Of a stretch of DNA of 64,000 nucleotides, positions 13,815-55,072 are shown piece by piece. The position numbers and the translations under genes were made by a program. The notes below the pieces were generated by a model. That model was not told where the DNA came from. It made no database searches and was given only the letters and a program-made list of their open reading frames with translations. The first letter of the stretch is position 1, and every line of letters begins with the position of its first letter. This DNA comes from an archaeon (lineage in GTDB: Archaea; Thermoproteota; Nitrososphaeria; Nitrososphaerales; JACAEJ01): positions 1-64,000 of the forward strand of contig JACGUK010000004.1 in assembly GCA_024256265.1 (NCBI GenBank). The letters are read 5' to 3'.

Positions 13815-13824
13815 GTGAAAGAAA

Positions 13825-20464: not shown

Positions 20465-20545
20465 AGCAAGGAATTGAGCAAAATTAAATGTCGCTTTAAA
20501 ACTTAAAAAAAGGGTGAAGGGGTACCCCTTACTGAGTTACCCTTT

Positions 20546-20773: not shown

Positions 20774-21182
20774 ATTTCTATTTTCACCTTAAGTAAGGTG
20801 TTAACATTAAAATTAAATAGCATTATTCAAAAATTCGATCAAAAATAAAATTTCTTAAGTAATAGATCATGGCTTTAATTTATAGCTCATCAGCTTGCCG
20901 GAAAATAAGCATGATGTGGGGTCAGAGGTGGGGTTTTTAAGCATTTTATTCTCAGATTAGTAATCTGCGAAAGGTTTTAAGTTAATCTGCGAACATTCCC
21001 AGATTAGAATCAATTTTTGCAAAAGACTTTTATATCGATCTATGAATACTTTGCACCAATCTGAGAATATGCGTATAATTTTTGCATTAATCTGCGCATT
21101 GTACAGATTGACATCAATTTTCCGATAAATTAAAAAGGCTCTAGTAAGTTAAAATGTTGAGCATTTTCCGATAGCCTACTCA
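20774..21182. other. 409-bp upstream region of gvpA
   Basis: No gene is visible. On the minus strand, near 20800-20850, AT-rich segments could form the gvpA promoter. From 20951 to 21109 seven copies of AATCTG or its complement occur. The region also separates gvpA from a GNAT acetyltransferase gene read on the same strand. Confidence 0.5.
20951..21116. promoter_or_regulatory. Array of AATCTG/CAGATT sites (candidate operators)
   Basis: AATCTG occurs at 20962, 20984, 21058 and 21089; its complement CAGATT occurs at 20953, 21000 and 21104. Three dyads result: CAGATTA-g-TAATCTG (20953-20967), AATCTG-10 bp-CAGATT (20984-21005) and AATCTG-9 bp-CAGATT (21089-21109). Several copies continue as CTGCG. 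The spacing suggests a dimeric regulator acting on gvpA. Confidence 0.5.
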
Positions 21183-21644
21183 TTAGAAAAGATGCTTGAC
21201 CATAAAAACTGCATCCTCTGTGTAGCCCCTCATCCTATAATAATGCCTAGCTATCTGAGTTTCGACAAAACCTAGATGGGAATAAAATCTTCTAGCTTCA
21301 ATATTTTTTAACTTCACTTCGAGCCTCACTTTATTAGCACCTTTTCTCTTGAACATTTCCGAAATATGCTCAACTAGGATTGTTCCTATGCCTTGCCCTC
21401 TGTAGGCAGGATCAATAGCTATGTCTAATATGTGTCCCTCTTTACAGCCTTCATTAATATTTCCAACTATGTATCCAACCACTTTGCCGTTGATTTCTGC
21501 TATAAGAAAACCTTCGCTAGGGATATCATAGTAACGCAATATTTGATTTAGAGGAGTAACATATCTGATCGAAGCTTTCTCGATCTCCCTAACCCTATCC
21601 ATATCGCTTTTCATAAACTGTCTGATGTTGATCTGACCTTTCAA
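21183..21644 (-). CDS. GNAT-family N-acetyltransferase (RimI-like)
   Basis: About 153 residues with the GNAT fold: INIRQFMKSDMDRVREIEKA at the start, the acetyl-CoA loop DPAYRGQGIGTILVEH, and ARRFYSHLGFVE near the end. Archaeal RimI/Ard1 proteins acetylate protein N-termini. I prefer TTG 21644 with a GGAG motif about 12 bases upstream; GTG 21656 overlaps that motif. Confidence 0.85.
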   Translation of the reverse strand: MKGQINIRQFMKSDMDRVREIEKASIRYVTPLNQILRYYDIPSEGFLIAEINGKVVGYIVGNINEGCKEGHILDIAIDPAYRGQGIGTILVEHISEMFKRKGANKVRLEVKLKNIEARRFYSHLGFVETQIARHYYRMRGYTEDAVFMVKHLF

Positions 21645-21803
21645 TATATAACTCACTCCTTAAGATAATAAAATATCAGATGAGCCAATTCTTTTATTAC
21701 TCCTCATTCTCATCGAGCTTCTTTATCATTTTTTCCTAAATGCATTATGATGTAATTTAGTACATGAAAATCCCTTTAAAACAAGCTAAAGATAATTGTA
21801 TAA

Positions 21804-22568
21804 ATGCCAAGCGTGCAAGTGCTCATAACATTCGATTTCGAGGAATGGGAGGTTAAGGCTGACTTATACGCAAAAACAAAGCGGATAGTGAACTTACTTA
21901 TGGAAAGAGGATTGCCTGCAACTTTCTTTCTGGATGCTGATACAGTTTTAAAGTACCCTGAAGCAGCTAGGCTACTATTAGATGGGCAATTCGAGCTAGC
22001 ACTGCATAGCGATTATCACTTCACTAAGAATAATTCATCTTCACATGATCTAGACTTCAGTCTCCAGAGCCATGAAACACAAATCTTAAGGTTGATGAAG
22101 GCAATAGAAATGATACGGAAGGTGATTCCTAGCTTTGATCCTAAAGGGTTTAGAGCCCCAGGTCTAAGGTGGAACGATGAACTTTACATTTCACTTAGCA
22201 AACTCAACTTCCTTTATGATAGTTCCCAGCAAGATAGATTCACATTCAAGCCCTTCCTTAAGAATGGTATTATAGTATTTCCAGTAAACTGTGGAGAGCA
22301 TGACTCTGCCTGCTATAAGCAAAAGCCTCAATATGTGATAAATGACTGGATAGACAAATTCAAAAGTGTTTATAGAGCCACAAATGAAGGTGTAAAGCCC
22401 TACTTCCTCGTTCTGGCTCATCCCTCTGTCTCTGGAAAGTACAAGTATATCGGAATGCTGAAAGCCATCCTCAACCGCATTAGCTACTACGATGTGGAGT
22501 ATTTGACATGTAGCGAGGCAGCACATAGATATTTAAGGGAAAGAAAACTGGAGCTCTTGCAGAGTTAA
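21804..22568 (+). CDS. Polysaccharide deacetylase (NodB-homology) family protein
   Basis: A 254-residue NodB-fold hydrolase. Metal-site motifs are LITFDFEEWEV (Asp11), LALHSDYH (His68, His72) and FRAPGLRWND, and a late HPSV segment carries the second catalytic His. It has no signal peptide, so it would act inside the cell or on a lipid-linked glycan at the membrane. Location in the gas-vesicle region may be incidental. Confidence 0.82.
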   Translation: MPSVQVLITFDFEEWEVKADLYAKTKRIVNLLMERGLPATFFLDADTVLKYPEAARLLLDGQFELALHSDYHFTKNNSSSHDLDFSLQSHETQILRLMKAIEMIRKVIPSFDPKGFRAPGLRWNDELYISLSKLNFLYDSSQQDRFTFKPFLKNGIIVFPVNCGEHDSACYKQKPQYVINDWIDKFKSVYRATNEGVKPYFLVLAHPSVSGKYKYIGMLKAILNRISYYDVEYLTCSEAAHRYLRERKLELLQS

Positions 22569-22677
22569 AACAGGGATGTTTGGGCTAACAGATCATTGAG
22601 TTTTGATTTTCGATCTATTTTTTTAATATTCCTTAAAAACCTTGAAATTTACTTTAGGAATTAGGGTGATAAGAAAT

Positions 22678-22935
22678 ATGGAAACTGTAATTGGGAAGTG
22701 GTCAAAGGATATCGAAGAGATGGAGAGCAAGATCAGTGATATAGAGAGCAAGGTTAATGCCTATGCCAATCAATTTCATATGAGAGTTAACATGCTGAAG
22801 GATGCGATAAAGAAGATGAGTAAGGCATTTGAAGCTTTCGCTAATCAATCTCGCGCAGAAGCCAATGCAATGAGTGTTCATATATGGGGAACGCAAGAAG
22901 CCAAGGAGGCATGGCAAAAGAAGTACGGTCGGTAA
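22678..22935 (+). CDS. Small coiled-coil protein
   Basis: An 85-residue product from ATG 22678, preceded by GGGTGAT at 22661-22667. The first 65 residues are a heptad-like coiled coil (KDIEEMESKISDIESKVNAY), and the end is WGTQEAKEAWQKKYGR. It lies only 12 bp before a second small helical gene. I do not recognise a family; a structural or assembly role in the gas-vesicle region is a guess based on location. Confidence 0.6.
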   Translation: METVIGKWSKDIEEMESKISDIESKVNAYANQFHMRVNMLKDAIKKMSKAFEAFANQSRAEANAMSVHIWGTQEAKEAWQKKYGR

Positions 22936-22947
22936 GCTGTCTGGGGT

Positions 22948-23208
22948 GTGAGCTTGTCTGAAGTAAAAGGGAGACCACAAAGATTCTACCTTGCTAGTCC
23001 TCGAATTATGGATGATTTTTACATAAGAGCTTGGCGCTCTCTACTTAATGAAAGAATAAAGTCAGATGATTCATACGCCAGAAAATTCCTGAATGAGGTA
23101 GACGAAATGGACAAAAAGGTTGAGCTGATGAAAGAAAGAGATGCTGCTTTTAAAAAGGATTTCTATGCTAGAGTGCGACAAAGAGAGGAGAAAATCTGGG
23201 GGAAGTAA
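22948..23208 (+). CDS. Small charged helical protein
   Basis: An 86-residue product starting at GTG 22948 or TTG 22954. The C-terminal half is highly charged and helical (NEVDEMDKKVELMKERDAAF) and ends REEKIWGK. It follows the coiled-coil gene by 12 bp, so the two are probably co-transcribed and may interact. No known family is recognised. Confidence 0.6.
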   Translation: MSLSEVKGRPQRFYLASPRIMDDFYIRAWRSLLNERIKSDDSYARKFLNEVDEMDKKVELMKERDAAFKKDFYARVRQREEKIWGK

Positions 23209-23238
23209 AAATATAGTTCTAAGAGTTGAAGTAAAGAA

Positions 23239-23442
23239 ATGGAAGAGAATACTGAACGCGTATATTCCTACATGATGACAGATGGGAAGTTTGGAGCACA
23301 TCCGTATCAAATAGCCAAGGCCTTAAACCTTACTGAAGCCACAGTTATAGATGCTCTGATGGAAATGGAAAGACATGGTAAGATAACTCTGAGAAGTTCG
23401 AATATAGAATGGAAGTTTAAGGGCGTAAAAAAGCCAAAATAA
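23239..23442 (+). CDS. Small winged-helix DNA-binding protein
   Basis: A 67-residue winged helix: GAHPYQIAKALNLTEATVID forms the recognition HTH and RHGKITLRSSNIEWKF the wing. It is the third of four small same-strand genes and a plausible local regulator. The start ATG 23239 follows a GAAGTAAAGAA segment with no strong Shine-Dalgarno. Confidence 0.7.
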   Translation: MEENTERVYSYMMTDGKFGAHPYQIAKALNLTEATVIDALMEMERHGKITLRSSNIEWKFKGVKKPK

Positions 23443-23458
23443 AGCTTGGTAGGAGGTT

Positions 23459-23704
23459 GTGAGTACTATCTCTCGGGCATGCTATAAGTTTATCCCAAAA
23501 TATCGACCTATTTATAGACCGAGGTATAGACCTAGGTATAAATCAGTCTATCGACCTATATTTGCCAGAACTAAGCCCTTAAAAGCTAGGTATAGATGTG
23601 CAGAAGATAAGTCTGCTTTCTTTTGGCTGAGCGATTTTCTTAGCCACGTTAAGAACGAACATCCAGGAAAGATGATCACACGGATACCTAAGATAAGTAT
23701 GTAA
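23459..23704 (+). CDS. YRP-repeat protein with degenerate C2H2-like C-terminus
   Basis: An 81-residue, very basic product. Residues 15-33 form a period-four repeat (YRPIYRPRYRPRYKSVYRP), also visible in the DNA as related TAT(C/A)GACC units. The C-terminal part (YRCAEDKSAFFWLSDFLSHV, then KNEHP) has the spacing of a C2H2 finger, but only one of the two cysteines (Cys47) with His63 and His68. GTG 23459 follows AGGAGG at 23451. Function unknown; nucleic-acid binding is possible. Confidence 0.55.
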   Translation: MSTISRACYKFIPKYRPIYRPRYRPRYKSVYRPIFARTKPLKARYRCAEDKSAFFWLSDFLSHVKNEHPGKMITRIPKISM

Positions 23705-23720
23705 ATAAAAATTAACGATA

Positions 23721-24611
23721 CTACATCGAGGATTTTTCTCTGTAAGAGTCGTAAAGTCTTTTAAATATATCTAAGGCTGATATTGCAAGGCGTATGCGAG
23801 TCCAGTGTATGGGTTTCTCTTCCTCCTTATAGGATTTGTAGTTCTCAAGCAAAATCTGAAGCTCATCATCAAGCTTTAAAGAGCGAGCTATTGTTGATGC
23901 TACCATGGTTAGCATAGGCAATAAATCTGGAGATTGTATAGTTAACTCTAACAATCTGCTAATAGCATTATGTTGCTCAAGGGCATCTTTAGCCTTGACA
24001 TAGTCCATCAGGCATTGTGGCAGTAACTGCTGAACCTCCTCCTTAGGCTTCTCTAGTTTATAGTGAAAGATTACGTAGCCTTCAGCTTTCCTATCTAATA
24101 TTGGGCTTAGCCTGCCCGTTACAATATTCTGGATAAAAGCGCTTATCATGGACAGTGTCTCCCTGACTTCTTCCTCCGTCATAATTGGGTGCGTATCAGT
24201 AGCCAGCGATGTTTCCAAAGATATGTGAAGAGGCTCGATACCTAGCATTTTGTATATGCTTAAATCATCTCTAACCATCATTTGAGCAACACGCTCAAGC
24301 TCAGGAAACAGCTCGATCTTTTGATGAGCCGAAAACCATTTCTCCATGCTAAATATCTTGTCTAAATCAAATATGCGTCTGGCATGCTCTGTGAATCTGT
24401 AAGCCGCCTTTAGCCTTCCGTTCGATTTCTTATACTCCTCTATTATACCCTTCCCCTTCAAGCTGGCTACTTTCTTTATGAAGGTGGTGTTACTCCCGCC
24501 AACCTTCTTCCTAAGATCGATTCTAAATGTGTCTCCCCCTTCATCTTTCATTATATTCACGATTTTGCTCTCTTTCTCATCCAAGAAGGGTAGTGACGCT
24601 TGCATTGCCAA
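23721..24611 (-). CDS. Winged-helix protein with long helical C-terminal domain
   Basis: A 296-residue protein with an N-terminal winged helix (LDEKESKIVNIMKDEGGDTF, then LRKKVGGSNTTFIKKVASL) at about 10-75 and a long helical domain. It is the last minus-strand gene after the gvp operon, separated from it by about 80 bp. A role as local gas-vesicle regulator or division-linked sensor is inferred from position only. Confidence 0.7.
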   Translation of the reverse strand: MAMQASLPFLDEKESKIVNIMKDEGGDTFRIDLRKKVGGSNTTFIKKVASLKGKGIIEEYKKSNGRLKAAYRFTEHARRIFDLDKIFSMEKWFSAHQKIELFPELERVAQMMVRDDLSIYKMLGIEPLHISLETSLATDTHPIMTEEEVRETLSMISAFIQNIVTGRLSPILDRKAEGYVIFHYKLEKPKEEVQQLLPQCLMDYVKAKDALEQHNAISRLLELTIQSPDLLPMLTMVASTIARSLKLDDELQILLENYKSYKEEEKPIHWTRIRLAISALDIFKRLYDSYREKSSM

Positions 24612-24693
24612 TTCTTTGGTACTATATCTGTATTTAATACTATATTCGATACTCGATACTCTAGAATTTATCTTTCATTCGAAGGATTTTTGT

Positions 24694-25476
24694 TTAAACA
24701 AAGCTATAAGGCGGCCAAGGTCCAGTAAAACGTGCATCGAAGCCCTTCGTTTCCTTGATTCTCGCTAACTCTCTCCCAATACCTTCAATTTTTCCTTTAT
24801 CTATTAGCAAGGACAAATTCATTAACATTTGTTTATCCTTATCTTTCTTCAGCTTTTCTACACAGATATCTTTAGTATGCTTCCTAATTTTATCATAGAA
24901 TTCTCTAAAGAGCATGTCTGCTTTTTTCTCCATTTCTCTTTTTAATACATTTTCTATCTTCATTTTATAGAAATAAGCCATTCCCTTTGGCTTTCTTTCC
25001 ATCTCCTCTCTTAGTTTCTTAATTTCATCACTCGTATTTGTGATCTTCTCAGCCATGATCTTCATATCCCAAAATATTTGAAAACCAACTTCGACTTTTC
25101 CCTCAAATTTATTCAACTTCTCTTTGAATTTTTCATACTCTTTCTTCAACCATTTTTTAACGTTTTTTTCACCTTTCACTATTACATCGAAACTCATTGG
25201 AAGTACTGTGCTGAATTTTTCCATTGCTGTATCGATAACCTCCTGATGCTTTAAAACGTAGCTTTTCACTTTTTCTTCATCCCCTTTATAAGGCTCAAGA
25301 GGGCAATCATGAACAACTGCACTAATGTTATTATATGGTATTGTATAAACCTCGTTATCATCTATGCCTATCTTACCGAAGCTCGTTCTGTCTCCACATT
25401 CTATAATGCAGTAAACGTATCTCCCTTTCCTGACATTTTCTATCGCTTTAACTTTCTCAGCTTTTTTAATGGACAT
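24694..25476 (-). CDS. gvpL: Gas vesicle protein GvpL/GvpF (second copy)
   Basis: A 260-residue paralogue of the 19.7-kb gvpF product: GRYVYCIIECGDRTSFGKIG, VYTIPYNNISAVVHDCPLEP and the C-terminal RFTGPWPPYSFV are shared. It is the last gene of the compact minus-strand gvp operon. The middle is Lys/Glu-rich coiled coil. Having two diverged copies agrees with other gas-vesicle clusters, where GvpF and GvpL are separate assembly factors. Confidence 0.92.
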   Translation of the reverse strand: MSIKKAEKVKAIENVRKGRYVYCIIECGDRTSFGKIGIDDNEVYTIPYNNISAVVHDCPLEPYKGDEEKVKSYVLKHQEVIDTAMEKFSTVLPMSFDVIVKGEKNVKKWLKKEYEKFKEKLNKFEGKVEVGFQIFWDMKIMAEKITNTSDEIKKLREEMERKPKGMAYFYKMKIENVLKREMEKKADMLFREFYDKIRKHTKDICVEKLKKDKDKQMLMNLSLLIDKGKIEGIGRELARIKETKGFDARFTGPWPPYSFV

Positions 25477-25495
25477 AATTATACCTCTTGAAAAA

Positions 25496-25841
25496 TTAAA
25501 TGAAAGATTCTTGTTGAAAGTTCTTCGCTAAAATAATAGCATCCCTCCATCGCTCAGGATTAGTGACAGCAACGTACCAATGCCCTTTTTCCATGATTAT
25601 GCAGATCGTCTTTCTCTTTAATCCAAATATCTCTCACTTTATCTAAGGAAATTTCGACTATTACTCTAATTGAAGGCTGGCAGAAAAGTAGCCTCTTATT
25701 TGTAAGGATTAAATTAATTGGCTTCCATGAGTTAGGGTGTAAGCCGATGGAGATGCATGCTGTTACACGTTTAACGATTTTCTCTCCTTCTATCAGAGGA
25801 GGATTCTTCATCATGTTTTTATGCTGAAGCAAACAAAGCAC
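25496..25841 (-). pseudogene. Frameshifted small gene within the gvp operon
   Basis: The first frame (GTG 25841, or ATG 25814/25811) gives PINLILTNKRLLFCQPSIRV and SLDKVRDI, like the beta-strands of a PH- or GRAM-like domain, then runs into poor sequence and stops at 25560. The +1 frame continues smoothly from about 25630 (GLKRKTICIIMEKGHWYVAV, then NPERWRDAIILAKNF) to a stop at 25496-25498. Joined, they would make about 105 residues. One base is missing or extra near 25625-25635. It lies between gvpK and gvpL. Confidence 0.6.
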
Positions 25842-25864
25842 CAGCTTGTATCAAGGTAATTGAA

Positions 25865-26191
25865 TCACACTTTATGATATGATTTAGCTTCATCTGCCCA
25901 TCTCTCAGGATTTAGAAATTTATCTAATACATCATCCACTACGCTATCTAAGCCATCCCTAATCTTTTGAACCGATTCCACTATTCCCTGCTCTTTCTTT
26001 ATCTCATCAATAGCTATATCTATATCCATAAGAGCTTGCCCTAGCCTTGTGCACTCTTCTTCTGTTAAATCTCCGCTTTCCATTCTCTTAAAGGCTTGAA
26101 GTTTTAGTGCATCCCTTATTATTTCAACAAGAGCCACAACGAGCCCAAGTACGCCATGCTTAAGATTTTTTTCATCTATATCTAGAACCAT
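25865..26191 (-). CDS. gvpK: Gas vesicle protein GvpK
   Basis: A 108-residue GvpK family member: KHGVLGLVVALVEIIRDALK with QAFKRMESGDLTEEECTRLG and a conserved helical end (LDSVVDDVLDKFLNPERW). GvpK is an accessory protein essential for vesicle formation in several systems. It follows the GvpJ/M gene by 10 bp. Confidence 0.92.
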   Translation of the reverse strand: MVLDIDEKNLKHGVLGLVVALVEIIRDALKLQAFKRMESGDLTEEECTRLGQALMDIDIAIDEIKKEQGIVESVQKIRDGLDSVVDDVLDKFLNPERWADEAKSYHKV

Positions 26192-26201
26192 AAATAATCC
26201 C

Positions 26202-26528
26202 TCATCTTATTGGCTTGCAAGCTAACATTGCTTGCTTTCTCATTTTATTTTTCGATATTGCTTCTATGAGAGCTTCCTTAGGTTCTTTTTTCTCAGCTTC
26301 TTTTCGTGCATAGGAGCGCATACGCTCATCCCAATCTTTCAATAAACCATACCTTAGCATAGTTTCCATGCTTGCAAGTGCAGCCCTAAGATTAACGCCA
26401 AGTAATGGAATACCTGCAACAGATATTATGATGTCTGCATTAATAACTAATCCTTTATCTAAGACTCTATCTAGCAAGTCAACAAGAGTAGCATGTTTTT
26501 CTCTTATTGGCTGTAGAACGCTTTCCAT
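26202..26528 (-). CDS. GvpA-related minor protein GvpJ/GvpM
   Basis: A 108-residue product with the GvpA-like core (LVDLLDRVLDKGLVINADII, then VAGIPLLGVNLRAALASMET), followed by a charged tail typical of GvpJ/GvpM. These are minor components or nucleators that cap the growing vesicle. The core is very close to that of the zinc-ribbon protein at 27.6-28.0 kb. Confidence 0.9.
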   Translation of the reverse strand: MESVLQPIREKHATLVDLLDRVLDKGLVINADIIISVAGIPLLGVNLRAALASMETMLRYGLLKDWDERMRSYARKEAEKKEPKEALIEAISKNKMRKQAMLACKPIR

Positions 26529-26561
26529 TCAATTATCATCCTTTATATACTATTAACCTAA

Positions 26562-26810
26562 CTACAATCTTAAGTCTATGACGTTTCCTCGCCTATTACT
26601 GGCAATTGTGGCAGATATGTTCTTTATCCGCTCTATTAATTCAGTCTCTAATTTCTTATAATCTTCTCTGCTTATTTTTCCTGTCTCGTATAGCAATCGA
26701 ACTTCACTTAGTTTATCTCGAAGAATGCGGAGATATTCTCGATCTGCGTATTGAGAGATTGAGTCCAGAAGAGTTATTGTTGAATCCCAGATAAGCTTTA
26801 TGAATGCCAA
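26562..26810 (-). CDS. gvpG: Gas vesicle protein GvpG
   Basis: An 82-residue helical protein. The spacing between residues, the N-terminal hydrophobic helix and the motif RLLYETGKISREDYKKLETE fit GvpG, an accessory factor found beside GvpF and GvpL. It lies in the operon 11 bp after gvpH and 33 bp before gvpJ/M. Confidence 0.82.
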   Translation of the reverse strand: MAFIKLIWDSTITLLDSISQYADREYLRILRDKLSEVRLLYETGKISREDYKKLETELIERIKNISATIASNRRGNVIDLRL

Positions 26811-26821
26811 TTTAATACCCC

Positions 26822-27310
26822 TTATTTACATTTTTCCAATCTAGCCTCTAAGATACCGTTTCTATACCTTGTGTTAATCTTATCAGCCTTGATAATGGTT
26901 GGTAGAGATATTTCCTTATAAGTTAAATTGTTGATCGATATTATGAGTTTATTACCCATAGGCTTTAACTTAATGTCCTCCTCCTTAAATCCAGGCAAAT
27001 CGATGATTAAAGTTAAATTGTCTTTACTATCAAATATGTCTATAAGGGGTTCTTTCCCTGATTCTTCTGAAAGTCCTCGGATTGTTGAATATCTTTTGAG
27101 TGTTGATTCTTCGATTTTATCATTCGTCAATGTTCTTATAGAGTAACTGTAAACCATGCTACTACCTTTGATTCCCAATAGGTCTTTAACTTCCCCTGCT
27201 TTCTTAACTTCACCATTTTTAAGCACTTCATCAAGTAAATGGAGAGCCTTCTCTAATCCTCTGAACATGGCACTGAACTCGGTATCATCAAGACGTCTTC
27301 TCTTGGACAT
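26822..27310 (-). CDS. gvpH: Gas vesicle protein GvpH (Hsp20-like)
   Basis: A 162-residue protein with an alpha-crystallin/Hsp20 domain in the second half (PLIDIFDSKDNLTLIIDLPG and YRNGILEARLEKC) and a GvpH-like N-terminal region. It may keep GvpA soluble before assembly. It lies four bases after gvpO. A larger Hsp20-like paralogue is at 29.9-30.6 kb. Confidence 0.85.
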   Translation of the reverse strand: MSKRRRLDDTEFSAMFRGLEKALHLLDEVLKNGEVKKAGEVKDLLGIKGSSMVYSYSIRTLTNDKIEESTLKRYSTIRGLSEESGKEPLIDIFDSKDNLTLIIDLPGFKEEDIKLKPMGNKLIISINNLTYKEISLPTIIKADKINTRYRNGILEARLEKCK

Positions 27311-27314
27311 TTAC

Positions 27315-27587
27315 TCACCTTATAACAGGGGCACGCCATTCTAGATCGCTTCTTCTCCTTAAGCTCTTTCGATCGTAGCTTATTACTTCCATCTTCTCGT
27401 TTAAAGTAACTTCGTATAAGCCAAGGATAGGGTCGAAACCTGCTCCAGTATCATCGATTACTTCAAGTGAAACCTCCCAGCCTTCCTCAACCTTCTCTAC
27501 GCCAATCACAGTAGCAGGCTTGCCCACAATTTCTTTGAAAAACATCTTTGCGGCTTCGCCAATCTTTTTAATTTCCATCTTTCTCAC
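27315..27587 (-). CDS. gvpO: Gas vesicle protein GvpO
   Basis: A 90-residue protein. The segment GWEVSLEVIDDTGAGFDPIL with LGLYEVTLNEKMEVISYDR is the GvpO signature (a wedge of strands ending in a Y-E-V pattern). Starts at 27587 and at the Met four codons downstream are both possible. It is the second gene of the compact operon, nine bases after the zinc-ribbon GvpJ. Confidence 0.9.
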   Translation of the reverse strand: MRKMEIKKIGEAAKMFFKEIVGKPATVIGVEKVEEGWEVSLEVIDDTGAGFDPILGLYEVTLNEKMEVISYDRKSLRRRSDLEWRAPVIR

Positions 27588-27596
27588 ATCCTTTGC

Positions 27597-28013
27597 TTAT
27601 GCATACCTCTCAACTTCCATCTTTCTTGTTTTACGGCGTAAATTGGTTGGCACTGTGACAGGCTTCTGTAATTCACCCTTCGATAGAGCGCTTCTCCATC
27701 CACACCACGGGCATCCTATATGAAGAAGCTCTTTTCTCTCAACCTTCTTATTACATTGAGGACAAGTCTCTTTGTCTATTTGTGCCTCCTTCCATGCTGC
27801 AGTCTCATAAGTTGTTCCTGAAGGAAAATCTAAGCCATACTTTGCTGCAGTCTCAAAAGATGCAAGAGCAGCCCTTATTTTTATGCCTAGCAACTCTACA
27901 CCAGCAACTGAAACCGTAATATCTGCGTTAATTACAAGCCCCTTATCTAGAATTCTGTCGATTAAGTCAACAAGAGTAGTATCTCTCTCCCTTGTAGGTT
28001 CAAGAATACCCAT
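27597..28013 (-). CDS. GvpJ/M-like protein fused to a zinc ribbon
   Basis: A 138-residue product. Residues 10-60 are a GvpA-family core (LVDLIDRILDKGLVINADIT, VAGVELLGIKIRAALASFET). After a linker, residues 84-104 form a zinc ribbon (CPQC ... GCPWCGW), followed by a basic tail. The combination is not one I know from described GvpJ or GvpM proteins. It is the first gene of the operon, downstream of the GTACT dyads, so it may link vesicle nucleation with metal or redox sensing; that is inference. Confidence 0.88.
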   Translation of the reverse strand: MGILEPTRERDTTLVDLIDRILDKGLVINADITVSVAGVELLGIKIRAALASFETAAKYGLDFPSGTTYETAAWKEAQIDKETCPQCNKKVERKELLHIGCPWCGWRSALSKGELQKPVTVPTNLRRKTRKMEVERYA

Positions 28014-28336
28014 CTATTTCACCACTAATTCTATAGAATATTTTTTTAAAAAGAATTTTTATGTACTAAAGTACACTGAAGCCTAGGTACTGATTTGTAC
28101 TATCACCCTTTTTTCATAACTCGATTTGTGAAACTTCTTACTCATTATTCCATGCTTATCAATGATAGGACTAGCGAATGGCATTCTATTATTGAAGAGT
28201 CCTTCTTTTGACGAAATACGAAGCCAACAGTATCATTGAACCAATCATTGTAATGTAAGGACCTAATCCTACTTTGAAGTATGATGATACAGGGGGAAGG
28301 GGGCTATAACTTTAGTATCATTTCTTCTGGATTCAT
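28014..28336. other. 323-bp upstream region of the gvp operon
   Basis: No gene is visible. Near 28040-28060 a T/A tract gives a TATA-like element on the minus strand. GTACT-type repeats lie at 28062-28101. Further out the sequence has short repeats such as GTATCAT but nothing that looks coding. Confidence 0.45.
28062..28101. promoter_or_regulatory. GTACT dyads upstream of the gvp operon
   Basis: TGTACTaaAGTACA (28062-28075) is an inverted repeat with a two-base spacer. It is followed by two direct GTACT copies at 28087 and 28097. The set lies 50-90 bp before the first gene of the minus-strand gvp operon, where an activator or repressor would bind. The motif differs from the AATCTG array in front of gvpA. 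Confidence 0.45.
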
Positions 28337-29023
28337 TCATTTTACCTTACCTATCTCTTTGCCCAACATTTTCATAAGTGAGGAGAAGGGAATTTTGATA
28401 TCTCGAACAGTCTTATGAAGGTTGGAAATTTGTGCCTTGTCAATCTTATCAAAGACCGCTTTTGGGAATCCTGTAGCAAATATTATTTCATTATTATCGT
28501 TGGATCCTTTCAAATTCAAAACAAATGGGTATTTTTCATCTTCAACTTGGCCTTGTATTAGTATAGAGAAGTAGTAACCTTGCCAGAACTCGTGAAAGCG
28601 ATTGCTAACTTTAGACCTAAACACTTCTGGTTGATCTACGCCAATAACCTCAATTCTTTTCACAATTTCTTCATTAACTACGCGTTGAACCTCTTCTTGT
28701 AAACTAGCCCTAATCTTATTGTATTCTTCAGCCAGACCTTGCCATTCTTCTATTGCTTTCTTCACAGATTTATCGACCAATTGATAGAATATCTTTTCCT
28801 TAATATCTCGAACTGGCTTGAGATTTGCCTCTGCATAAACGTTAATGTTTTTTTCTTGTACTGAAATCACAATTGTGTTCAAAGGGGCATATATTTCTTG
28901 GATGGCCAGAAGATTTATGGGTTGCTTAACTAACCTATGAGTTGAGTAAGCATACCATATTGTGACACCGACAAGAACTAGCATCGGACTGTTTGTAACG
29001 AGCCAATCAAGTATGTCTAGCAA
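28337..29023 (-). CDS. Membrane-anchored hypothetical protein
   Basis: A 228-residue protein with one N-terminal membrane helix (SPMLVLVGVTIWYAY, about 12-26) and a soluble, mixed alpha/beta body. I recognise no family. It starts two bases after the stop of the AbrB-type gene, so the pair is probably an operon. Confidence 0.65.
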   Translation of the reverse strand: MLDILDWLVTNSPMLVLVGVTIWYAYSTHRLVKQPINLLAIQEIYAPLNTIVISVQEKNINVYAEANLKPVRDIKEKIFYQLVDKSVKKAIEEWQGLAEEYNKIRASLQEEVQRVVNEEIVKRIEVIGVDQPEVFRSKVSNRFHEFWQGYYFSILIQGQVEDEKYPFVLNLKGSNDNNEIIFATGFPKAVFDKIDKAQISNLHKTVRDIKIPFSSLMKMLGKEIGKVK

Positions 29024-29025
29024 TT

Positions 29026-29205
29026 TTAAACCTTAACCTTCCTCATCGTTATTATCAGCCCCCCATCCCTTGCCTCTATGGACCAATCGAGCTTATCTCC
29101 AGGCTTAAGGTTGAATTGCCTTGCTATTCCTTTAGGGATTACGGTCCTAATTGAGCCTGTTGTGGTGGCTGCCTTGCTTATAGTTGTTATCTCCCCTGAT
29201 CCCAT
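29026..29205 (-). CDS. AbrB/SpoVT-type DNA-binding protein
   Basis: A 59-residue swapped-hairpin protein: ATTTGSIRTVIPKGIARQFN, then PGDKLDWSIEARDGGLIITM, matches the AbrB/MazE fold. The frame is open to 29259, but the Met at 29205 begins the domain. It may autoregulate together with the membrane protein downstream. Confidence 0.8.
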   Translation of the reverse strand: MGSGEITTISKAATTTGSIRTVIPKGIARQFNLKPGDKLDWSIEARDGGLIITMRKVKV

Positions 29206-29227
29206 ATAACTCACGCTCAAGGTTAAG

Positions 29228-29392
29228 TTATGAAGGGTAATAAACATTATATATGACAATATCGATTACCTTAACGATGGTAATAATGGCTAAGAAGGAT
29301 TTTCCTATTGGAGAAGAGTAATCAATTATTTCTTGGAGGTCTTTCTTTGATATTTTTACAGTATTCTTCCTCTTCACTCTTCTTATCATCAT
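29228..29392 (-). other. Possible small ORF beside an AbrB remnant
   Basis: A 54-codon frame from ATG 29392 (RRVKRKNTVKISKKDLQEII, then a hydrophobic end). Its ATG overlaps the stop of an AbrB-like remnant (ATGA), as in antitoxin-toxin pairs. Nothing confirms it is translated, and the end reads like chance AT-rich sequence. Confidence 0.25.
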
Positions 29393-29490
29393 GCTTTCCT
29401 GACAACTATTATCATTTCTCCATCCCTAGCCTTACTATCTTCTAATCCTTTTATGAGATGATCTTTTACAGTGTAAGGGAATCTTTCTTT
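29389..29490 (-). pseudogene. C-terminal remnant of a second AbrB-type antitoxin
   Basis: The frame FPYTVKDHLIKGLEDSKARD, ending GEMIIVVRKA and a stop at 29389-29391, matches the end of AbrB/SpoVT antitoxins, as does the intact gene nearby (ARDGGLIITM). The N-terminal DNA-binding part is missing. It shows that an earlier AbrB-type element has decayed here. The rest of 29206-29571 holds no clear gene. Confidence 0.45.
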
Positions 29491-29571
29491 TTAGAGGTTC
29501 TTAGCTTGCTTCACCATAGGTATATATATTCGATTTTCGATTGGTTTCTGAATGAAGGGAGGTGAGAGGCA

Positions 29572-29850
29572 GTGGCATGGTTGCTCTGCAAAAAGTGGGG
29601 TAAGAAGCTAATTCTTGGTGACGTAGGAGCTATAGAGGGTGTAGATCCAGAGGTAGGAGGGTACGTTTTCTGCGGCTTTTACCATAATCAAGCCTACAGA
29701 CCCAGATTGACCGAAAAAGTGCCAGTAGCAAACGTTGAGGAATCTTGTAAGAACTGCAAGTACTTTAATTCGATAACATGGGATTATGCCGGAAGGAAGT
29801 TCGTACTAATGGGGCAAATGGATGATAGGTGGAAACACAAGAGAGAGTAA
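29572..29850 (+). CDS. Small cysteine-containing hypothetical protein
   Basis: A 92-residue product starting at GTG 29572 after GGGAGGTGAGAGGCA. Cysteines occur at the N-terminus (LLCKKWGKK), in FCGFYHNQ and as a CKNCKYF pair, a possible metal site. No family recognised. It stands alone between divergent genes of the gas-vesicle region. Confidence 0.55.
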   Translation: MAWLLCKKWGKKLILGDVGAIEGVDPEVGGYVFCGFYHNQAYRPRLTEKVPVANVEESCKNCKYFNSITWDYAGRKFVLMGQMDDRWKHKRE

Positions 29851-29917
29851 GCTATCTAATCCCATGAAACAAAAATGGAAGGTAAGGGAGCTAAGTAAAG
29901 CTCTATGATATAAATGA

Positions 29918-30562
29918 CTATTCAGCCTTCTTCTTCAACTTTATCCTAAGGATACCATTTGTGTACGTTCTTTCAACAGGCTCTGAGAAGACCTTAGTTG
30001 GAAGTTTCTGCTCAGTGTGATACTTTCTTTCAGAGGTCTCAGCCGATATAGCAATCTTCTCCTCATCTATGACAAGATTCAAATCCTTCTCTTCGATTCC
30101 AGGTAGTTCAACTATGACTTCCAGATGCTCCTTTCCCTCAATGAACTCTACTAAAGGCTCCCTTACCCCCTCTTTCACAGTATAGGGGATTTTTCTCCCA
30201 GTGGGTCTTAGCCTGCTCCTCCACTCCGCCCTCTCTTTTGCTAATTCATCCATTCTGCTGAAGAACTCTCCGCCTCCAATGCGTAAGCCTTCCTTCCCTC
30301 CTAAAAGGCCACCAATGTGAATGTCGTAGTCTACTCTAATCGTGTCGCCGTACTTTTTCCTGAGCTCCTCTTGCATTTCTAGGAACTTCTTCCTCTGCTC
30401 CTCAAGTCTCTCCTTAACTTGCTCTATCTGCTTTGAGTCGAGTAAGGACTTGAAGTCTTCCATTCCTGTCCAGCTTTTGATGATTTCTCCAAGGTCAAGA
30501 CCGAGTATTCTAATGTTGAAGATATCCCACAACTTAGGCTCCTTCTTTTCTTTCTCACTCAT
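29918..30562 (-). CDS. Hsp20/GvpH-like small heat-shock protein
   Basis: About 214 residues: a long coiled-coil N-terminal region (KQIEQVKERLEEQRKKFLEM), then an alpha-crystallin domain (EHLEVIVELPGIEEKDLNLV, ending YTNGILRIKLKKK). It is longer than a typical Hsp20 and fits the GvpH class. ATG 30562 is preferred to the start five codons upstream. It is divergent from an ArsR-type regulator across a spacer of about 95 bp. Confidence 0.8.
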   Translation of the reverse strand: MSEKEKKEPKLWDIFNIRILGLDLGEIIKSWTGMEDFKSLLDSKQIEQVKERLEEQRKKFLEMQEELRKKYGDTIRVDYDIHIGGLLGGKEGLRIGGGEFFSRMDELAKERAEWRSRLRPTGRKIPYTVKEGVREPLVEFIEGKEHLEVIVELPGIEEKDLNLVIDEEKIAISAETSERKYHTEQKLPTKVFSEPVERTYTNGILRIKLKKKAE

Positions 30563-30656
30563 ACATACTTCCTCCACCTATCACTAGTTAACCGATGGAT
30601 ATAAACCTTTTGTTATAATCCAAAACCTTATATCTTAAGAATTTATAACTTTAATA

Positions 30657-36915: not shown

Positions 36916-38223
36916 CTAAACGATTGGTATGAGTCTAACCTTATTTTCAATTAAGTCGACTGCATAAAGACCAGTCTTAGGTCGCATTCCATACACAACG
37001 AGAGCATTATTAAGGTCTTTGAATACAAAGTGAGAATCTGCTACATGTGTAACATATCCTAGGAATTTCATGCCACGTTTCATCGTTCCAATAATTGTAG
37101 TTCCGCTTTCTTGTGCATAATTGATGATGGCTTCAACTATGGCGAGCGTCTTGTCAGATCCAAATCGATTTACAAGTGTGTCAAAACCAAGAAAAATGAC
37201 TAAACCGTTCCTAAGATGCTTAGAATCAAACCTTTTTTCTGCAATTTCTTTCACAACCTTTATCTCGCTTTCAAAGTCATTTGTATTAGGACGATGTAAA
37301 ACAACCTCTTGTACTAATTCAGAAGGATAAATTTCACCTATGGAAGGAATTATCATCGTCCCTCTCTTATTCATAACAGCGTTCCAAGTGATTTGTGTAT
37401 GTATTTGTAAGTACCTCATATCCACGCTGTGCTCAACCTCTAATAAGTTAAAACTCCCTTTTTTGAAACCTCCGGTGATCCTATCAAGATCAGGAATCCC
37501 TGATGAGATTCGGTCGTTGGCAAGATCCACGATTTTTACTGGTCTGACAGATAGGTCTTCACAAAACGGGGGAAAAGACCTAAACCTTCCACCTTCTAAA
37601 GTAAATGTGTATTTCTTATTTAAGACTCTGATTCCTCTCAACTTTTTAAGTTCCATCTCTCTTGCAGCTCGTCTTTCGAGGCGATCTTCATAGACTCTGC
37701 CTGCTTCAGCTTCACCATAAACGTCCGTAGAAGTGAGGCTCACAACGCCGTCAACAAGAAAATCAAGGAAAGATGTTTTTTCTGTCTCTTCTACCAATAT
37801 TGTTCTGCCATTTGTCACATACGTCGTCATTATGATTGCTTTTGCAGCTCGTAACTGTTCTTTATGATCCATCTCCATAGCCATAGCGTCCCAAGTATCA
37901 ACTACAAGAAAAGGGTGCTCCATCTTCAGTAATTGATCTCGAAGTCTATTCAAGAGCCTCTCAGGGCTTTCCTGGCGTGTTTCCAAAAATCGTATCTCTT
38001 CTGGACCTAGAACTATCTTATCCTTAAGCCAAGGGTAGTATTCGTAAAGGATGTTTGGTGGAGTTTTCGTTGAAAAGTAAATACAGTCAACTGGTTCAAA
38101 AAATTGAAGTATTTCTAATGCTAAGGTAGTTTTGCCCGTCCCAGCATCACCTTTGATGAGCAAAGTGCGTCCTATCTTAAGGAAATGGCTCAACTCATCA
38201 GGGATTCTTGGTGCGCTTATCAA
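36916..38223 (-). CDS. gvpD: GvpD-like RecA/KaiC-family ATPase
   Basis: A 435-residue P-loop protein: Walker A GDAGTGKTT near 24-32, Walker B FLVVDTWDAMA, and an Arg-rich element (RLERRAAREMELKKLRGIRV) like the basic region of haloarchaeal GvpD, a regulator of gas-vesicle expression. The TTG start follows GGGGTGAT. A small ribbon-helix-helix gene lies 26 bp upstream in the same direction. Placement at the end of the gas-vesicle region supports the call. Confidence 0.8.
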   Translation of the reverse strand: MISAPRIPDELSHFLKIGRTLLIKGDAGTGKTTLALEILQFFEPVDCIYFSTKTPPNILYEYYPWLKDKIVLGPEEIRFLETRQESPERLLNRLRDQLLKMEHPFLVVDTWDAMAMEMDHKEQLRAAKAIIMTTYVTNGRTILVEETEKTSFLDFLVDGVVSLTSTDVYGEAEAGRVYEDRLERRAAREMELKKLRGIRVLNKKYTFTLEGGRFRSFPPFCEDLSVRPVKIVDLANDRISSGIPDLDRITGGFKKGSFNLLEVEHSVDMRYLQIHTQITWNAVMNKRGTMIIPSIGEIYPSELVQEVVLHRPNTNDFESEIKVVKEIAEKRFDSKHLRNGLVIFLGFDTLVNRFGSDKTLAIVEAIINYAQESGTTIIGTMKRGMKFLGYVTHVADSHFVFKDLNNALVVYGMRPKTGLYAVDLIENKVRLIPIV

Positions 38224-52107: not shown

Positions 52108-52199
52108 GCCAAAGTTAAATGAAGATATTAACCTTAATTCTTCTAGAGAAGAACCACGTGTATAAGCCTTAAGCGTAATATATTTAAGGTTGCTAGCCA

Positions 52200-53021
52200 G
52201 TGATTTTTTTAATGAGTGAGTATTCTGATAACCCCGGATCATTACCTGCTGAAAAACTATGCAATAGTTCTCCCCCATACAATCCCGTCAAAGGGGATGG
52301 AGCTCTAGGTAATCAATATCATGGGAAGATGTTTTATAGGGGGAATAATAGGGAAGAATTGGTCAAGACTCTTCAGATGATGTTAAAAACACTCGGCTAC
52401 GATCTTGGCACCTTTGGCCCTAACAAGGATGGTATAGATGGAAAGTTCGGTGACGATACTGAAAAGGCTGTAAAGCAATTTCAGGAGAAGAACAAGAATT
52501 GGGATGGCAATAATCTTAAGGTTGATGGATTAGTCGGCCCTGAAACTTCAGATGCTTTGAACAGAGCAATGGTTGGTTTATGGTATGATCATTACCAAAC
52601 ACCGAAAGAGTTGGTGGAAAATAAGCCATATCATACTGTGACATCAGATTTCTTGACAAACGGTTTGGCATTTGATCCATATGAAGCAGACAAATCCAAA
52701 GTTTTTGTGAAAGGTCCTCTTCCCCAGGGATATCTGAGTCACATTTCAGTACTACTTCGTAGCAATTCTGGCGCTGTACCATTGTCTAACCTTGCCTACC
52801 GCATCCAAGTCAGCGAGAGCAAAATTTTGGAAGGAAAGACCGATAAGGATGGGCTCGTCCATCATTCAAACGTCTCTCCAGGGGATTATCGAATGAAGAT
52901 CGAAGGACTCGAAGACGAAATCCTCGTTTCGACGCTACCGACTCATATCGTGCACCGAATAACAAGAGTGCCGGGCTATTTTCTTTTTGAAAAAGGTTCT
53001 GAGAAGGAGGATGTGGAATAA
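52200..53021 (+). CDS. Peptidoglycan-binding-domain protein with beta-sandwich C-terminus
   Basis: Roughly 270 residues; the likely start is ATG 52212 (MSEYSDNPGSLPAEK). A PG_binding_1 domain spans about 45-120 (EELVKTLQMMLKTLGYDLGT, DGKFGDDTEKAVKQFQEKN, DGLVGPETSDALNRAM). The C-terminal part (SNLAYRIQVSESKILEGKTD, then KDGLVHHSNVSPGDYRMKIE) is like a small beta-sandwich common in bacterial T6SS- or eCIS-associated proteins. No signal peptide is seen. The gene abuts the next one. It looks bacterial in origin. Confidence 0.75.
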   Translation: MIFLMSEYSDNPGSLPAEKLCNSSPPYNPVKGDGALGNQYHGKMFYRGNNREELVKTLQMMLKTLGYDLGTFGPNKDGIDGKFGDDTEKAVKQFQEKNKNWDGNNLKVDGLVGPETSDALNRAMVGLWYDHYQTPKELVENKPYHTVTSDFLTNGLAFDPYEADKSKVFVKGPLPQGYLSHISVLLRSNSGAVPLSNLAYRIQVSESKILEGKTDKDGLVHHSNVSPGDYRMKIEGLEDEILVSTLPTHIVHRITRVPGYFLFEKGSEKEDVE

Positions 53022-54526
53022 TGAGTGTCAAGCCGGACACGTACTTTCATGCAACGCTTACACCGGGGGTACTCAGTAGTCTCAAAAAGATAGTGACGAT
53101 TAGCTTTGACTCACCCAAACGCGCTGATGACGTACAAATAGGTTTGTTTGAGGCAGATGAGTGGACTCAAGGAACTACACATGTAGAAGAGGGTACTGGC
53201 TCCTTCAATCTGATCGCACTATTTAAAGGTGATATACGTGACGGAAAATTTATCGGTTTACCTAGGCTGCAGGGTCGAGGGGCAGGGCCAAATCCACGAA
53301 AACTGCGAGTGCATATAGATGGAGACCCAGACGATAAATACTACACTCTCGAAATCTCTGAGGACACTGGCGAACAAGAGGGCGAGCTTCTGGAAATAGT
53401 CTTTTGTGTCAGCGGAACTATCGATGGAGTCAAGAAGGAATACAAGGACTGCAACCCAGTCTTCGTGAGGCTTATACCAGATCGCAGGCCGGTGATCACA
53501 TTTATTACGGGCCATGACGCGAAGAAAGGCAACCCTTTCTTCGGTGCTGCAACACAGTACTTTGAACATTTAGCTGATGGAATAATTCCACCACCAAAGC
53601 AAAGAGATCTCAGCTTCGAAGAAATCCTGGATTATCTCGATCGACCGATTCGCAAAGGCAAGCATGTGATCAATCCACCCTGGGGTGAAGTCAATATTGT
53701 AACACATGGCACTAATTATGGGAGAAGGAAAGATGGTAGCAATTGCGACTTTTGTGAGATATTCTCTCCGCTATTCCCAAACGGTGACAGAATCACTGCA
53801 GGCTTACTTAAGAGAAACTCAGGGAACCCTAGATTAAGGGCGGACAAAACGAAACTGGACGAGGACTCCATAATAGTCATTCGGGGATGCGAGATAGGTG
53901 ACGATCAGGTTCTGCTTGATGAGCTCAGGCGACTTTTTGGAGGGCGCGCAACCGTCATTGCACCCAGACCGATCCAAAAGTATGCACCTGAGAGGCCGAA
54001 AGAACCCTTGAGTGAAGGAAATCCCACGAGGGAGTCTTTTTTGGAGTATTTCTTCTTCTATGTTCCAGGTTCTAAATCTCCTGACCAAAATAAGACAAAA
54101 GAGGAGAGAAAAATTTGTATAGGTAAACTAAGGGAGAAATACCCGGATCGGAATTCTGATGACCAATGGACTGAGATGCTCAATAGCGACTTGAGACATG
54201 ACCGTAATACTGAGCAGGTTACACTCAGGGTACTATATCCATCAATTCCGGAAAAGAACAAAGACTTCCTTGGAGACGCAGAAAATGTATTCAATCAGAC
54301 CAAGAAGACTTCTCCAGAGGAAATTTTCTTCTCAGACTTTAAGGATTGGGAATGGCATAGGCAGGGTCCGTTTCCATTGGTTTATGGTGGTGAAAAGAAA
54401 TTCGAATGCCGTTTTACGGGCAGAAGGTACCGAGTGGATGTAAGGCGTGTGTTAAACGATTCCAAAGGGAGTCCTGTGATACCAGTCATTACTGACCCAA
54501 CATACTATGGTCGCTCAGAGCTTTGA
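53021..54526 (+). CDS. Large hypothetical protein with HG...GC pattern
   Basis: A 501-residue protein starting one base before the end of the previous gene. The N-terminal 150 residues look beta-rich (an Ig-like carrier). The middle part has VNIVTHGTNYG (His229) and IIVIRGCEIGDDQVLLDELR (Cys290), each at the end of a hydrophobic strand, a layout like clan CD cysteine proteases (CHAT/caspase-like). That is inference from pattern only. It is almost certainly a functional partner of the upstream protein. Confidence 0.7.
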   Translation: MSVKPDTYFHATLTPGVLSSLKKIVTISFDSPKRADDVQIGLFEADEWTQGTTHVEEGTGSFNLIALFKGDIRDGKFIGLPRLQGRGAGPNPRKLRVHIDGDPDDKYYTLEISEDTGEQEGELLEIVFCVSGTIDGVKKEYKDCNPVFVRLIPDRRPVITFITGHDAKKGNPFFGAATQYFEHLADGIIPPPKQRDLSFEEILDYLDRPIRKGKHVINPPWGEVNIVTHGTNYGRRKDGSNCDFCEIFSPLFPNGDRITAGLLKRNSGNPRLRADKTKLDEDSIIVIRGCEIGDDQVLLDELRRLFGGRATVIAPRPIQKYAPERPKEPLSEGNPTRESFLEYFFFYVPGSKSPDQNKTKEERKICIGKLREKYPDRNSDDQWTEMLNSDLRHDRNTEQVTLRVLYPSIPEKNKDFLGDAENVFNQTKKTSPEEIFFSDFKDWEWHRQGPFPLVYGGEKKFECRFTGRRYRVDVRRVLNDSKGSPVIPVITDPTYYGRSEL

Positions 54527-54654
54527 AGGTAATAAAGTAGTACAGAATCACGTTATTTGGGGCGGCTTCGCACATAGCCCTTTGACATCAACGATCAAAG
54601 ATTTGAAAATGATTCGAAGGGATAGCTTCTCCAATTTACAAATAATGTTGATTG

Positions 54655-54897
54655 TTAGGCAGGTAGAGACAGTTTAATTTCATTCTTTGCTTTAGGTACC
54701 TCAATAATTCCCTCTTTGTCAGTTTGTTTAGCCATCGTATTTCCATTATCAACCGTAACATTAAACGTAACACCTTCAACGGCTTTTTGTTCATTATCAA
54801 GAATCTCTATAACAAAACTTACTGGTTGGATATCAGGAACCTTATACTCCTTACGAGAAACCATAAGTTCCAATCCTATAGAGAAAGATTTAAGCAT
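54655..54897 (-). CDS. Small beta-sandwich protein
   Basis: About 80 residues from ATG 54897 (open to 54927). Residues from about 30 onward (DNEQKAVEGVTFNVTVDNGN, then TDKEGIIEVPKAKNEIKLSL) repeat the pattern seen in the C-terminus of the 52.2-kb protein (...GKTDKDGLVHH...). It is convergent with the 501-residue gene and so may be part of the same module. The domain itself has no known catalytic residues. Confidence 0.6.
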   Translation of the reverse strand: MLKSFSIGLELMVSRKEYKVPDIQPVSFVIEILDNEQKAVEGVTFNVTVDNGNTMAKQTDKEGIIEVPKAKNEIKLSLPA

Positions 54898-55072
54898 TCT
54901 ATCCTTAAATATCATAATGATAGGCAAGGATTATATCTTCCTCATCGTTAAGAATTAGATACAGGGACGCTATCCAACTTTTTGAATTAAGTTTAATAAA
55001 ATTGCTAAGAGTTATGTTCTAGATCATCAAAATTTAAATCCTTATGAATTAATTATAAATTAAGGAACCTTA

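What the first reader, a model, noticed from the sequence alone, without database searches (positions are those of the whole stretch)
52200..54897. Bacterial-style module: peptidoglycan-binding protein plus HG...GC protein in an archaeon
A PG_binding_1 protein with a T6SS/eCIS-style beta-sandwich is followed at once by a 501-residue protein whose His229 and Cys290 lie at strand ends as in CHAT/caspase-like proteases. A small protein with the same TDKxG sandwich motif lies opposite. Archaea of this group lack murein, so the target may be bacterial. No signal peptide is visible, so release would need an injection or lytic route. This is the best candidate for an undescribed effector system here.
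Basis: partly seen in the sequence, partly recalled or inferred. Interest (0 to 1): 0.72.

Follow-up and report, generated by a model that had tools for sequence, protein, structure and literature searches.

The report
Archaeal injection-type protease and carrier pair
An archaeon carries a gene pair for a caspase-fold protease and a cell-wall-binding carrier protein; in bacteria relatives of this pair sit beside molecular-syringe genes, so it is probably a weapon injected into neighbouring cells, although the syringe itself was not seen in the stretch we could read.

Summary
The window is Nitrososphaeria archaeon DNA. Genes 52212-53021 and 53021-54526 overlap by one base. The first is a peptidoglycan-binding domain plus a C-terminal transthyretin/prealbumin-like (TTR) domain. 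The second is an Ig-like N-domain plus a clan CD (caspase-fold) protease domain; His229 and Cys290 are invariant in 28 of 28 aligned rows, and its best solved-fold match is the T6SS protease Tce1 (moderate Z, 9.3). In eight bacterial loci the gene directly upstream of the protease carries the same TTR domain, alone or fused to OmpA/PG-binding proteins or VgrG. Six of the eight have PAAR or VgrG genes nearby, and seven of the eight genomes encode a T6SS sheath. The N-domain was detected in seven of these eight proteases and in none of eight relatives without a seen TTR partner. Best reading: a protease effector docked on a TTR adaptor and carried by a contractile injection system, the archaeal carrier adding murein binding. 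No injection gene was found in the 64 kb and the genome is not held, so delivery and target are inferred. The third gene is only a distant TTR-like relative. New variant of a known kind.

The parts
52176..52187 (+). TATA-like stretch (TAATATATTTAA) about 30 bases before ATG 52212, beside the divergent ProRS gene; possible archaeal promoter
   Evidence: seen by eye in the sequence printed; inference, not tested
52212..53021 (+). carrier protein, 269 aa: N-terminal LPAxxLCN...GDGALGN region, PG_binding_1, linker, C-terminal TTR-like domain
   Evidence: Pfam; homologs; model pLDDT 85
52353..52559 (+). PG_binding_1 domain
52728..53000 (+). TTR/prealbumin-like domain (residues 173-263 of 269), proposed docking site for the protease
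   Evidence: fold matches to CnaB and transthyretin-like proteins; sequence match to the gene upstream of the protease in 8 bacterial loci
53021..54526 (+). clan CD cysteine-protease-like protein, 501 aa
   Evidence: homologs; alignment A1; model pLDDT 83.5
53042..53479 (+). Ig-like N-terminal domain (residues 8-153); among the loci examined it was detected only in proteins that follow a TTR-bearing gene
   Evidence: fold rows; N-domain profile
53480..54523 (+). protease domain (residues 154-501)
53705..53707 (+). codon of His229, putative catalytic
   Evidence: invariant 28 of 28
53888..53890 (+). codon of Cys290, putative catalytic
   Evidence: invariant 28 of 28
54655..54864 (-). small convergent gene, about 69 aa from ATG 54864, TTR/SpaA-like; membership in the module uncertain
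   Evidence: SpaA E 0.002, below cut-off; 58% identity to the N-terminal domain of P0066, which continues into a related PG-binding carrier

Best explanation
The two genes encode a carrier-effector pair of the contractile-injection (T6SS/eCIS) kind. The 501-aa protein is a toxin protease of clan CD with a His229-Cys290 dyad. Its Ig-like N-domain docks on the TTR-like domain at the end of the carrier. The carrier rides with the spike or tube of a contractile injection system encoded elsewhere in the genome. After injection the carrier's peptidoglycan-binding domain holds or guides the payload at the murein of a bacterial target, and the protease cleaves target proteins. Shown here: both domain sets (by profile and model), the invariant dyad, the conserved TTR-protease gene order, co-occurrence of N-domain and TTR partner, and linkage to T6SS/eCIS in bacteria. 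Inferred: docking, delivery in this archaeon, a bacterial target, and proteolytic activity.
For: Fold: the protease region best matches the T6SS effector Tce1 and other clan CD domains. Dyad: H and C in 28 of 28 rows; in 17 further locus ORFs both are kept in 16, the exception (L022) matching only the N-domain (His lies in the seed pattern of the 14 genome-contig loci, Cys does not). Pairing: 16 protease loci were seen (L001-L014, L019, L021). In 8 (L001-L006, L010, L019) the gene immediately upstream carries the window's TTR domain (single-sequence phmmer E 7e-8 to 8e-29; profile), with gaps of -8 to +79 bases. Carriers differ: separate TTR proteins with PAAR close by (L001, L002, L003, L006), VgrG (L004), OmpA or OmpA/PG-binding (L005, L010, L019; some of these domain hits below cut-off). 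Of the other 8, 5 with a visible upstream gene have no TTR match, 2 are cut by a contig end, 1 (L021) is unclear. N-domain: detected in 7 of the 8 TTR-linked proteases (not L010), weakly in the L022 protein that also follows a TTR carrier, and in 0 of the other 8 loci, two of which are cut at that end. Machines: VipB sheath in 6 and TssC in 1 of the 8 TTR-linked genomes against VipB in 12 of 98 genomes of one phylum sample; phage-type sheath in 5 of 5 genomes of L007, L008, L011, L013, L014 (one below cut-off). Of three genomes without a sheath hit, two have members with an export- or anchor-like N-terminal segment (L009, L012); the third (G001) does not. A related carrier from a Methanoregula MAG ends in a PAAR-like stretch (P0081; 25.3 bits, cut-off 27). 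A TTR domain of VgrG binds effector Tle1 (PMC10433429, passages). Nitrososphaera evergladensis is listed with a chromosomal sheath protein (PMC9230969, passages).
Confidence: 0.64

Rival explanations
1. The protease is a releasing enzyme, not the toxin: like the processing domains of RTX toxins it cleaves the carrier or another cargo during or after delivery.
For: Its fold neighbours include autoprocessing domains; caspase-like domains act as releasing peptidases in many polymorphic toxins (PMC3482391, passages).
Against: It is a separate protein with the protease at the C-terminal end and no other recognised toxin domain; PMC3482391 reads C-terminal-most caspase domains as toxins. In G044 a parallel TTR carrier is followed by a protein with a weak N-domain match (E 1.1e-6) and no protease (L022), as if the C-terminal part were the exchangeable payload.
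Confidence: 0.15
2. The pair is used outside the cell without an injection system: released by lysis or by an unknown route, with the carrier binding bacterial murein so that the protease works on cell-surface proteins.
For: Peptidoglycan-binding domain; no injection gene seen in the window; two relatives (L009, L012) in genomes without a sheath hit have export- or anchor-like starts; secreted archaeal peptidoglycan hydrolases kill bacteria (PMC12352652, passages).
Against: No export signal by hydropathy in the window's proteins; bacterial relatives are coupled to T6SS or eCIS.
Confidence: 0.11
3. A cell-internal role, such as a caspase-type defence or cell-death protease.
For: SAVED-CHAT and Craspase are among the fold neighbours.
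Against: No PADLOC match at E 0.01 for the three proteins; no sensor or gasdermin-like gene recognised beside it by eye; peptidoglycan binding has no evident use in an archaeal cell without murein (recalled lineage trait).
Confidence: 0.05
4. A recently acquired, non-functional or misassembled bacterial fragment.
For: Codon usage of the protease gene is the second most atypical of 41 large ORFs (z -2.22); the named relatives of the protease are bacterial.
Against: Both frames are intact with an invariant dyad; the carrier's codon usage is ordinary for the window (z -0.87); the flanking ProRS is archaeal (85% to a Nitrososphaerales MAG); 81%, 63% and 93% identical homologs come from other contigs (P0002, P0003, P0029); related carriers come from two named archaeal MAGs (P0081, P0094).
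Confidence: 0.05

Closest known systems
Tce1 / Tce2, Pseudomonas aeruginosa H3-T6SS cysteine protease effectors (PMC13323088, passages read)
   Different: Tce1 is enclosed by Hcp rings; here the partner gene is a TTR carrier and the N-domain is Ig-like; the Tce1 chain is not among the sequence hits; archaeal host
Autoprocessing cysteine protease domains of MARTX and TcdA toxins
   Different: those are internal domains of giant toxins (recalled); here a separate effector-like protein
VgrG-TTR / Tle1 loading in enteroaggregative E. coli (PMC10433429, passages read)
   Same: a transthyretin-like domain on a spike protein paired with a cargo effector; L004 here has the TTR domain on VgrG itself
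   Different: cargo is a protease, and the TTR domain is mostly on separate, OmpA/PG-binding or archaeal carriers
Tox-Caspase of polymorphic toxin systems (PMC3482391, passages read)
   Same: caspase-fold domain predicted as a delivered toxin, including with PVC-type injection
   Different: the passages name T7SS, PVC-SS, TcdB/TcaC and T2SS delivery; 'transthyretin' does not occur in the held part of the text (300,000 of 357,715 characters)
Haloarchaeal T6SS (PMC11566945, outline, abstract and section 10 read)
   Same: archaeal injection of toxins
   Different: its toxins, several with DUF4157, were toxic in a haloarchaeon; this pair is in a different phylum, lacks DUF4157 and has a murein-binding-type carrier
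Archaeal peptidoglycan hydrolases such as Woldo (PMC12352652, passages read)
   Same: archaeal protein with a peptidoglycan-binding domain, aimed at bacteria
   Different: those have a hydrolase domain; Woldo has a Tat signal and 32% (67 of 210) of the archaeal homologs a known signal peptide; here no hydrolase domain and no signal

Membership tests
Clan CD (caspase-fold) cysteine peptidase | His and Cys dyad at the ends of successive strands | tested here: met
   H229 and C290 in 28 of 28 rows, after strands 223-227 and 284-288
Clan CD (caspase-fold) cysteine peptidase | caspase-like alpha/beta core | tested here: met
Clan CD (caspase-fold) cysteine peptidase | proteolytic activity needing the Cys | not testable with these tools
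   needs an assay
CHAT or peptidase C80 family by sequence | match to the curated family profile | tested here: not met
   no Pfam family at E 5 or better and no NCBIfam family
C80-type domain | activation by inositol hexakisphosphate | not tested
   no residue comparison was made
T6SS/eCIS cargo effector | genes linked to injection genes in relatives | tested here: met
   PAAR, VgrG or other T6SS genes in L001-L004 and L006, a VgrG about 6 kb away on the L019 contig; hub and PAAR in L011
T6SS/eCIS cargo effector | injection machine in the host genome | tested here: inconclusive
   bacterial hosts: a sheath hit in 12 of 15 genomes (G001-G014, G044), G063 tested for VipB only, none; window's own genome not held, none seen in the 64 kb
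T6SS/eCIS cargo effector | secretion dependent on the machine | not testable with these tools
   needs a sheath mutant
TTR effector-adaptor | transthyretin-like fold | tested here: met
   CnaB2, 5-hydroxyisourate hydrolase and transthyretin rows, CnaB/SpaA pilin rows
TTR effector-adaptor | binds the effector | not testable with these tools
   only gene order and N-domain co-occurrence support it
Peptidoglycan hydrolase | a catalytic hydrolase domain | tested here: not met
   no such Pfam domain in either protein; the PHROGs endolysin rows with E under 1e-6 align with the binding domain region
DUF4157 eCIS/T6SS toxin | DUF4157 domain | tested here: not met
   no Pfam hit

The most novel reading that the evidence does not exclude
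A Nitrososphaeria archaeon fires a contractile injection system at bacteria, using a carrier that grips the victim's murein and delivers a caspase-fold protease through a TTR adaptor. This would be an inter-domain weapon assembled from an archaeal-type carrier and a protease acquired from bacteria.
Probability: 0.33. Interest if true: 0.78.

Novelty: new variant of a known kind. Interest (0 to 1): 0.58.

Why it matters
If right, a family with no match in Pfam, NCBIfam or PADLOC becomes a named class of injected protease with a recognisable partner, so that effectors can be found by looking one gene downstream of a TTR domain. It would extend archaeal injection weapons beyond haloarchaea to Nitrososphaeria and point to bacteria as targets, since the carrier has a binding domain for a polymer that archaea of this group are not thought to make (recalled). 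The docking claim (Ig-like N-domain on TTR domain) can be tested directly with two small purified domains.

Tried and rejected
Own-genome search: not held. Plasmid and phage records: no match for the protease; for the carrier 1 plasmid and 4 phage records, each matching only about the PG-binding stretch. Viral contigs: no relative of either protein. Solved-structure sequence search with the protease and with its alignment gave only chance-level hits. Foldseek on the full protease model gave poor matches in the 50 rows shown, and the viral structure library nothing at E 0.001; the second-look aligner was needed. Considered and rejected: chimera (archaeal flank, ordinary codon usage of the carrier, homologs from other contigs); peptidoglycan hydrolase (no catalytic domain); defence protease (no PADLOC hit); prophage lysis gene (no phage gene recognised among the frames looked at). 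The third gene as part of the module is neither shown nor excluded. L021 (weak protease match, overlapping a PAAR-like frame with a TTR hit of E 0.005) was left out of the pairing count as unclear; L020 and L023 repeat L002 and L006. A strict rule 'sheath or export signal' fails for G001, which showed neither. The protease tree places the window with P0002 and P0003, whose hosts are unnamed, and deep branches are weak, so donor and direction of transfer are unresolved. The search for papers on this family found none: (open-licence PMC papers only; mostly listings, with passages read from 11 papers).

Full report
What is there. The window is archaeal: the ProRS that flanks the module is 85% identical to that of a Nitrososphaerales MAG and 79% to Ca. 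Methylarchaceae archaeon HK01B, and an unsplit rpoA-like frame of 1269 aa lies at 7045-10851 (name by eye). Between ProRS (-) and the gene at 55073 (+) lie two genes on the + strand. The first, 52212-53021, has PG_binding_1. The second, 53021-54526, begins on the last base of its stop codon. A third small frame is convergent, 54655-54927.

The protease. The 501-aa protein has no match in Pfam or NCBIfam at E 5 and none in PADLOC at E 0.01; the one PHROGs row (E 0.35) is chance-level. The protein search found 28 hits, one of them the window's own shorter form (P0001); the other 27 plus the window were aligned as A1. His229 in WGEVNIVTHG and Cys290 in IVIRGCEIG are invariant in 28 of 28. In 17 further locus ORFs both residues are kept in 16; the other, from L022, matches the N-domain only. 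The 14 genome-contig loci were collected with a pattern that includes the His, so for them only the Cys is an independent test.

The pair is conserved. One genome-contig scan gave 14 loci. Phylum samples added L019 and the weak L021: 3 of 98 genomes had a hit, one being G002 itself, and 1 of 40, which was G006 itself. In 8 loci (L001-L006, L010, L019) the gene immediately upstream of the protease carries the TTR domain: single-sequence phmmer with the window's domain E 7.2e-8 or better, profile E 1.4e-15 or better. The L019 carrier begins like P0104, which is in the profile and seems to be the same protein, so for L019 only the single-sequence result is independent. Intergenic gaps run from -8 to +79 bases. 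The TTR domain is a separate protein in L001, L002, L003 and L006, the C-terminal end of VgrG in L004, and the C-terminal end of OmpA-type proteins in L005, L010 and L019 (OmpA in L010 and PG_binding_1 in L005 are below cut-off). In L001 a LysM/PG_binding_1 gene stands directly before it. So murein-binding domains recur with this module, and the archaeal carrier is another fusion on the same theme. Of the remaining 8 protease loci, 5 with a visible upstream gene (L008, L009, L011, L012, L013) have no TTR match there, 2 are cut at a contig end (L007, L014), and L021 is unclear.

The N-domain goes with the TTR partner. A profile of residues 1-153 hits 7 of the 8 TTR-linked proteases (not L010), none of the other 8 (of which L007 and L014 are cut at that end), and weakly the 408-aa protein of L022 (E 1.1e-6), which has no protease match but follows its own TTR carrier in the same G044 cluster. 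This suggests that the N-domain is the docking part and the C-terminal part the payload; L010 is an exception, or too diverged.

The machines. VipB sheath was found in 5 of 14 genomes and in G044. TssC PF17541 was found in G002 (1 of 8 genomes tested), beside Hcp and an AAA ATPase. Thus 7 of the 8 TTR-linked genomes have a T6SS sheath; G001 gave none, nor a hub, although a PAAR gene lies close by. For comparison, VipB occurs in 12 of 98 genomes of the phylum of G002, G044 included. Phage-type sheath was found in all five genomes of L007, L008, L011, L013 and L014, in G013 below cut-off. L011 also shows an eCIS-like hub and a PAAR gene. G009 and G012 gave no sheath or hub hit, and their proteases start with a hydrophobic segment (2.39 and 2.27, against 1.51 or less in the rest). 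Export signal and sheath may thus be alternatives, but numbers are small and G001 has neither.

In the archaeon. No injection part was seen in 64 kb. Fifteen queries from the loci gave two tblastn rows: VgrG of L004 on the carrier's own TTR stretch (E 3e-6) and a chance-level TssC row (E 0.32). Thirty of the 79 frames, chosen as unclear, gave no such Pfam family. The genome is not held. Plausibility comes from print: haloarchaeal T6SS with toxins (PMC11566945), a chromosomal sheath protein listed for Nitrososphaera evergladensis (PMC9230969, with the authors' own caution about binning of MAGs), and a hint that archaeal murein hydrolases without signal peptide go with sheath genes (P 0.059; PMC12352652). 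Codon usage: carrier z -0.87, protease z -2.22 against 39 other large ORFs of the window, consistent with an established carrier and a later-acquired protease. The tree does not resolve the donor.

Mechanism and limits. The most likely working is docking of the N-domain on the TTR domain, transport with a contractile machine, retention at murein by the carrier, and proteolysis in or at the target. A TTR domain on VgrG is reported to bind the effector Tle1 (PMC10433429). Docking, delivery, target and activity are inferences. Caspase-fold domains also serve as releasing peptidases (PMC3482391), which is the main rival. Novelty: a new variant of a known kind, not a new principle.

Noticed in passing
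window 19709-30577: Gas vesicle cluster in a Nitrososphaeria archaeon: two GvpL/GvpF, three GvpA-type, one GvpK and two HSP20-like genes, plus a GvpD-type P-loop match at 36919-38223.
   Followed up: partly
window 109-1958: Three adjacent genes like a bacterial ubiquitin-type set: E2-like (Prok-E2_E, below cut-off), JAB-like (below cut-off) and E1-like with PADLOC E1-E2 matches; the E1-like gene has the most atypical codon usage of 41 large ORFs (z -3.69).
   Followed up: partly
L022 745-1968 (G044): 408-aa protein with a weak match to the N-domain but not the protease, after its own OmpA/TTR carrier and next to a LysM/PG_binding gene: possibly a second payload of the same loading type.
   Followed up: partly
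L004 11512-12234, L005 5574-6671: The gene directly after the protease in two Myxococcota loci starts like a lipoprotein by eye, the usual place of a periplasmic immunity gene; no Pfam match for the L004 protein.
   Followed up: no
L007, L008, L011, L013, L014: Cyanobacterial and Chloroflexi relatives, up to 953 aa, carry the protease domain in their C-terminal half, without a detected TTR partner or N-domain (L007 and L014 are cut at a contig end); L011 lies beside hub and PAAR genes.
   Followed up: partly
window 13014-15024: Cell-division (Cdv/ESCRT) type genes: Snf7-like (below cut-off) and Vps4-like.
   Followed up: no
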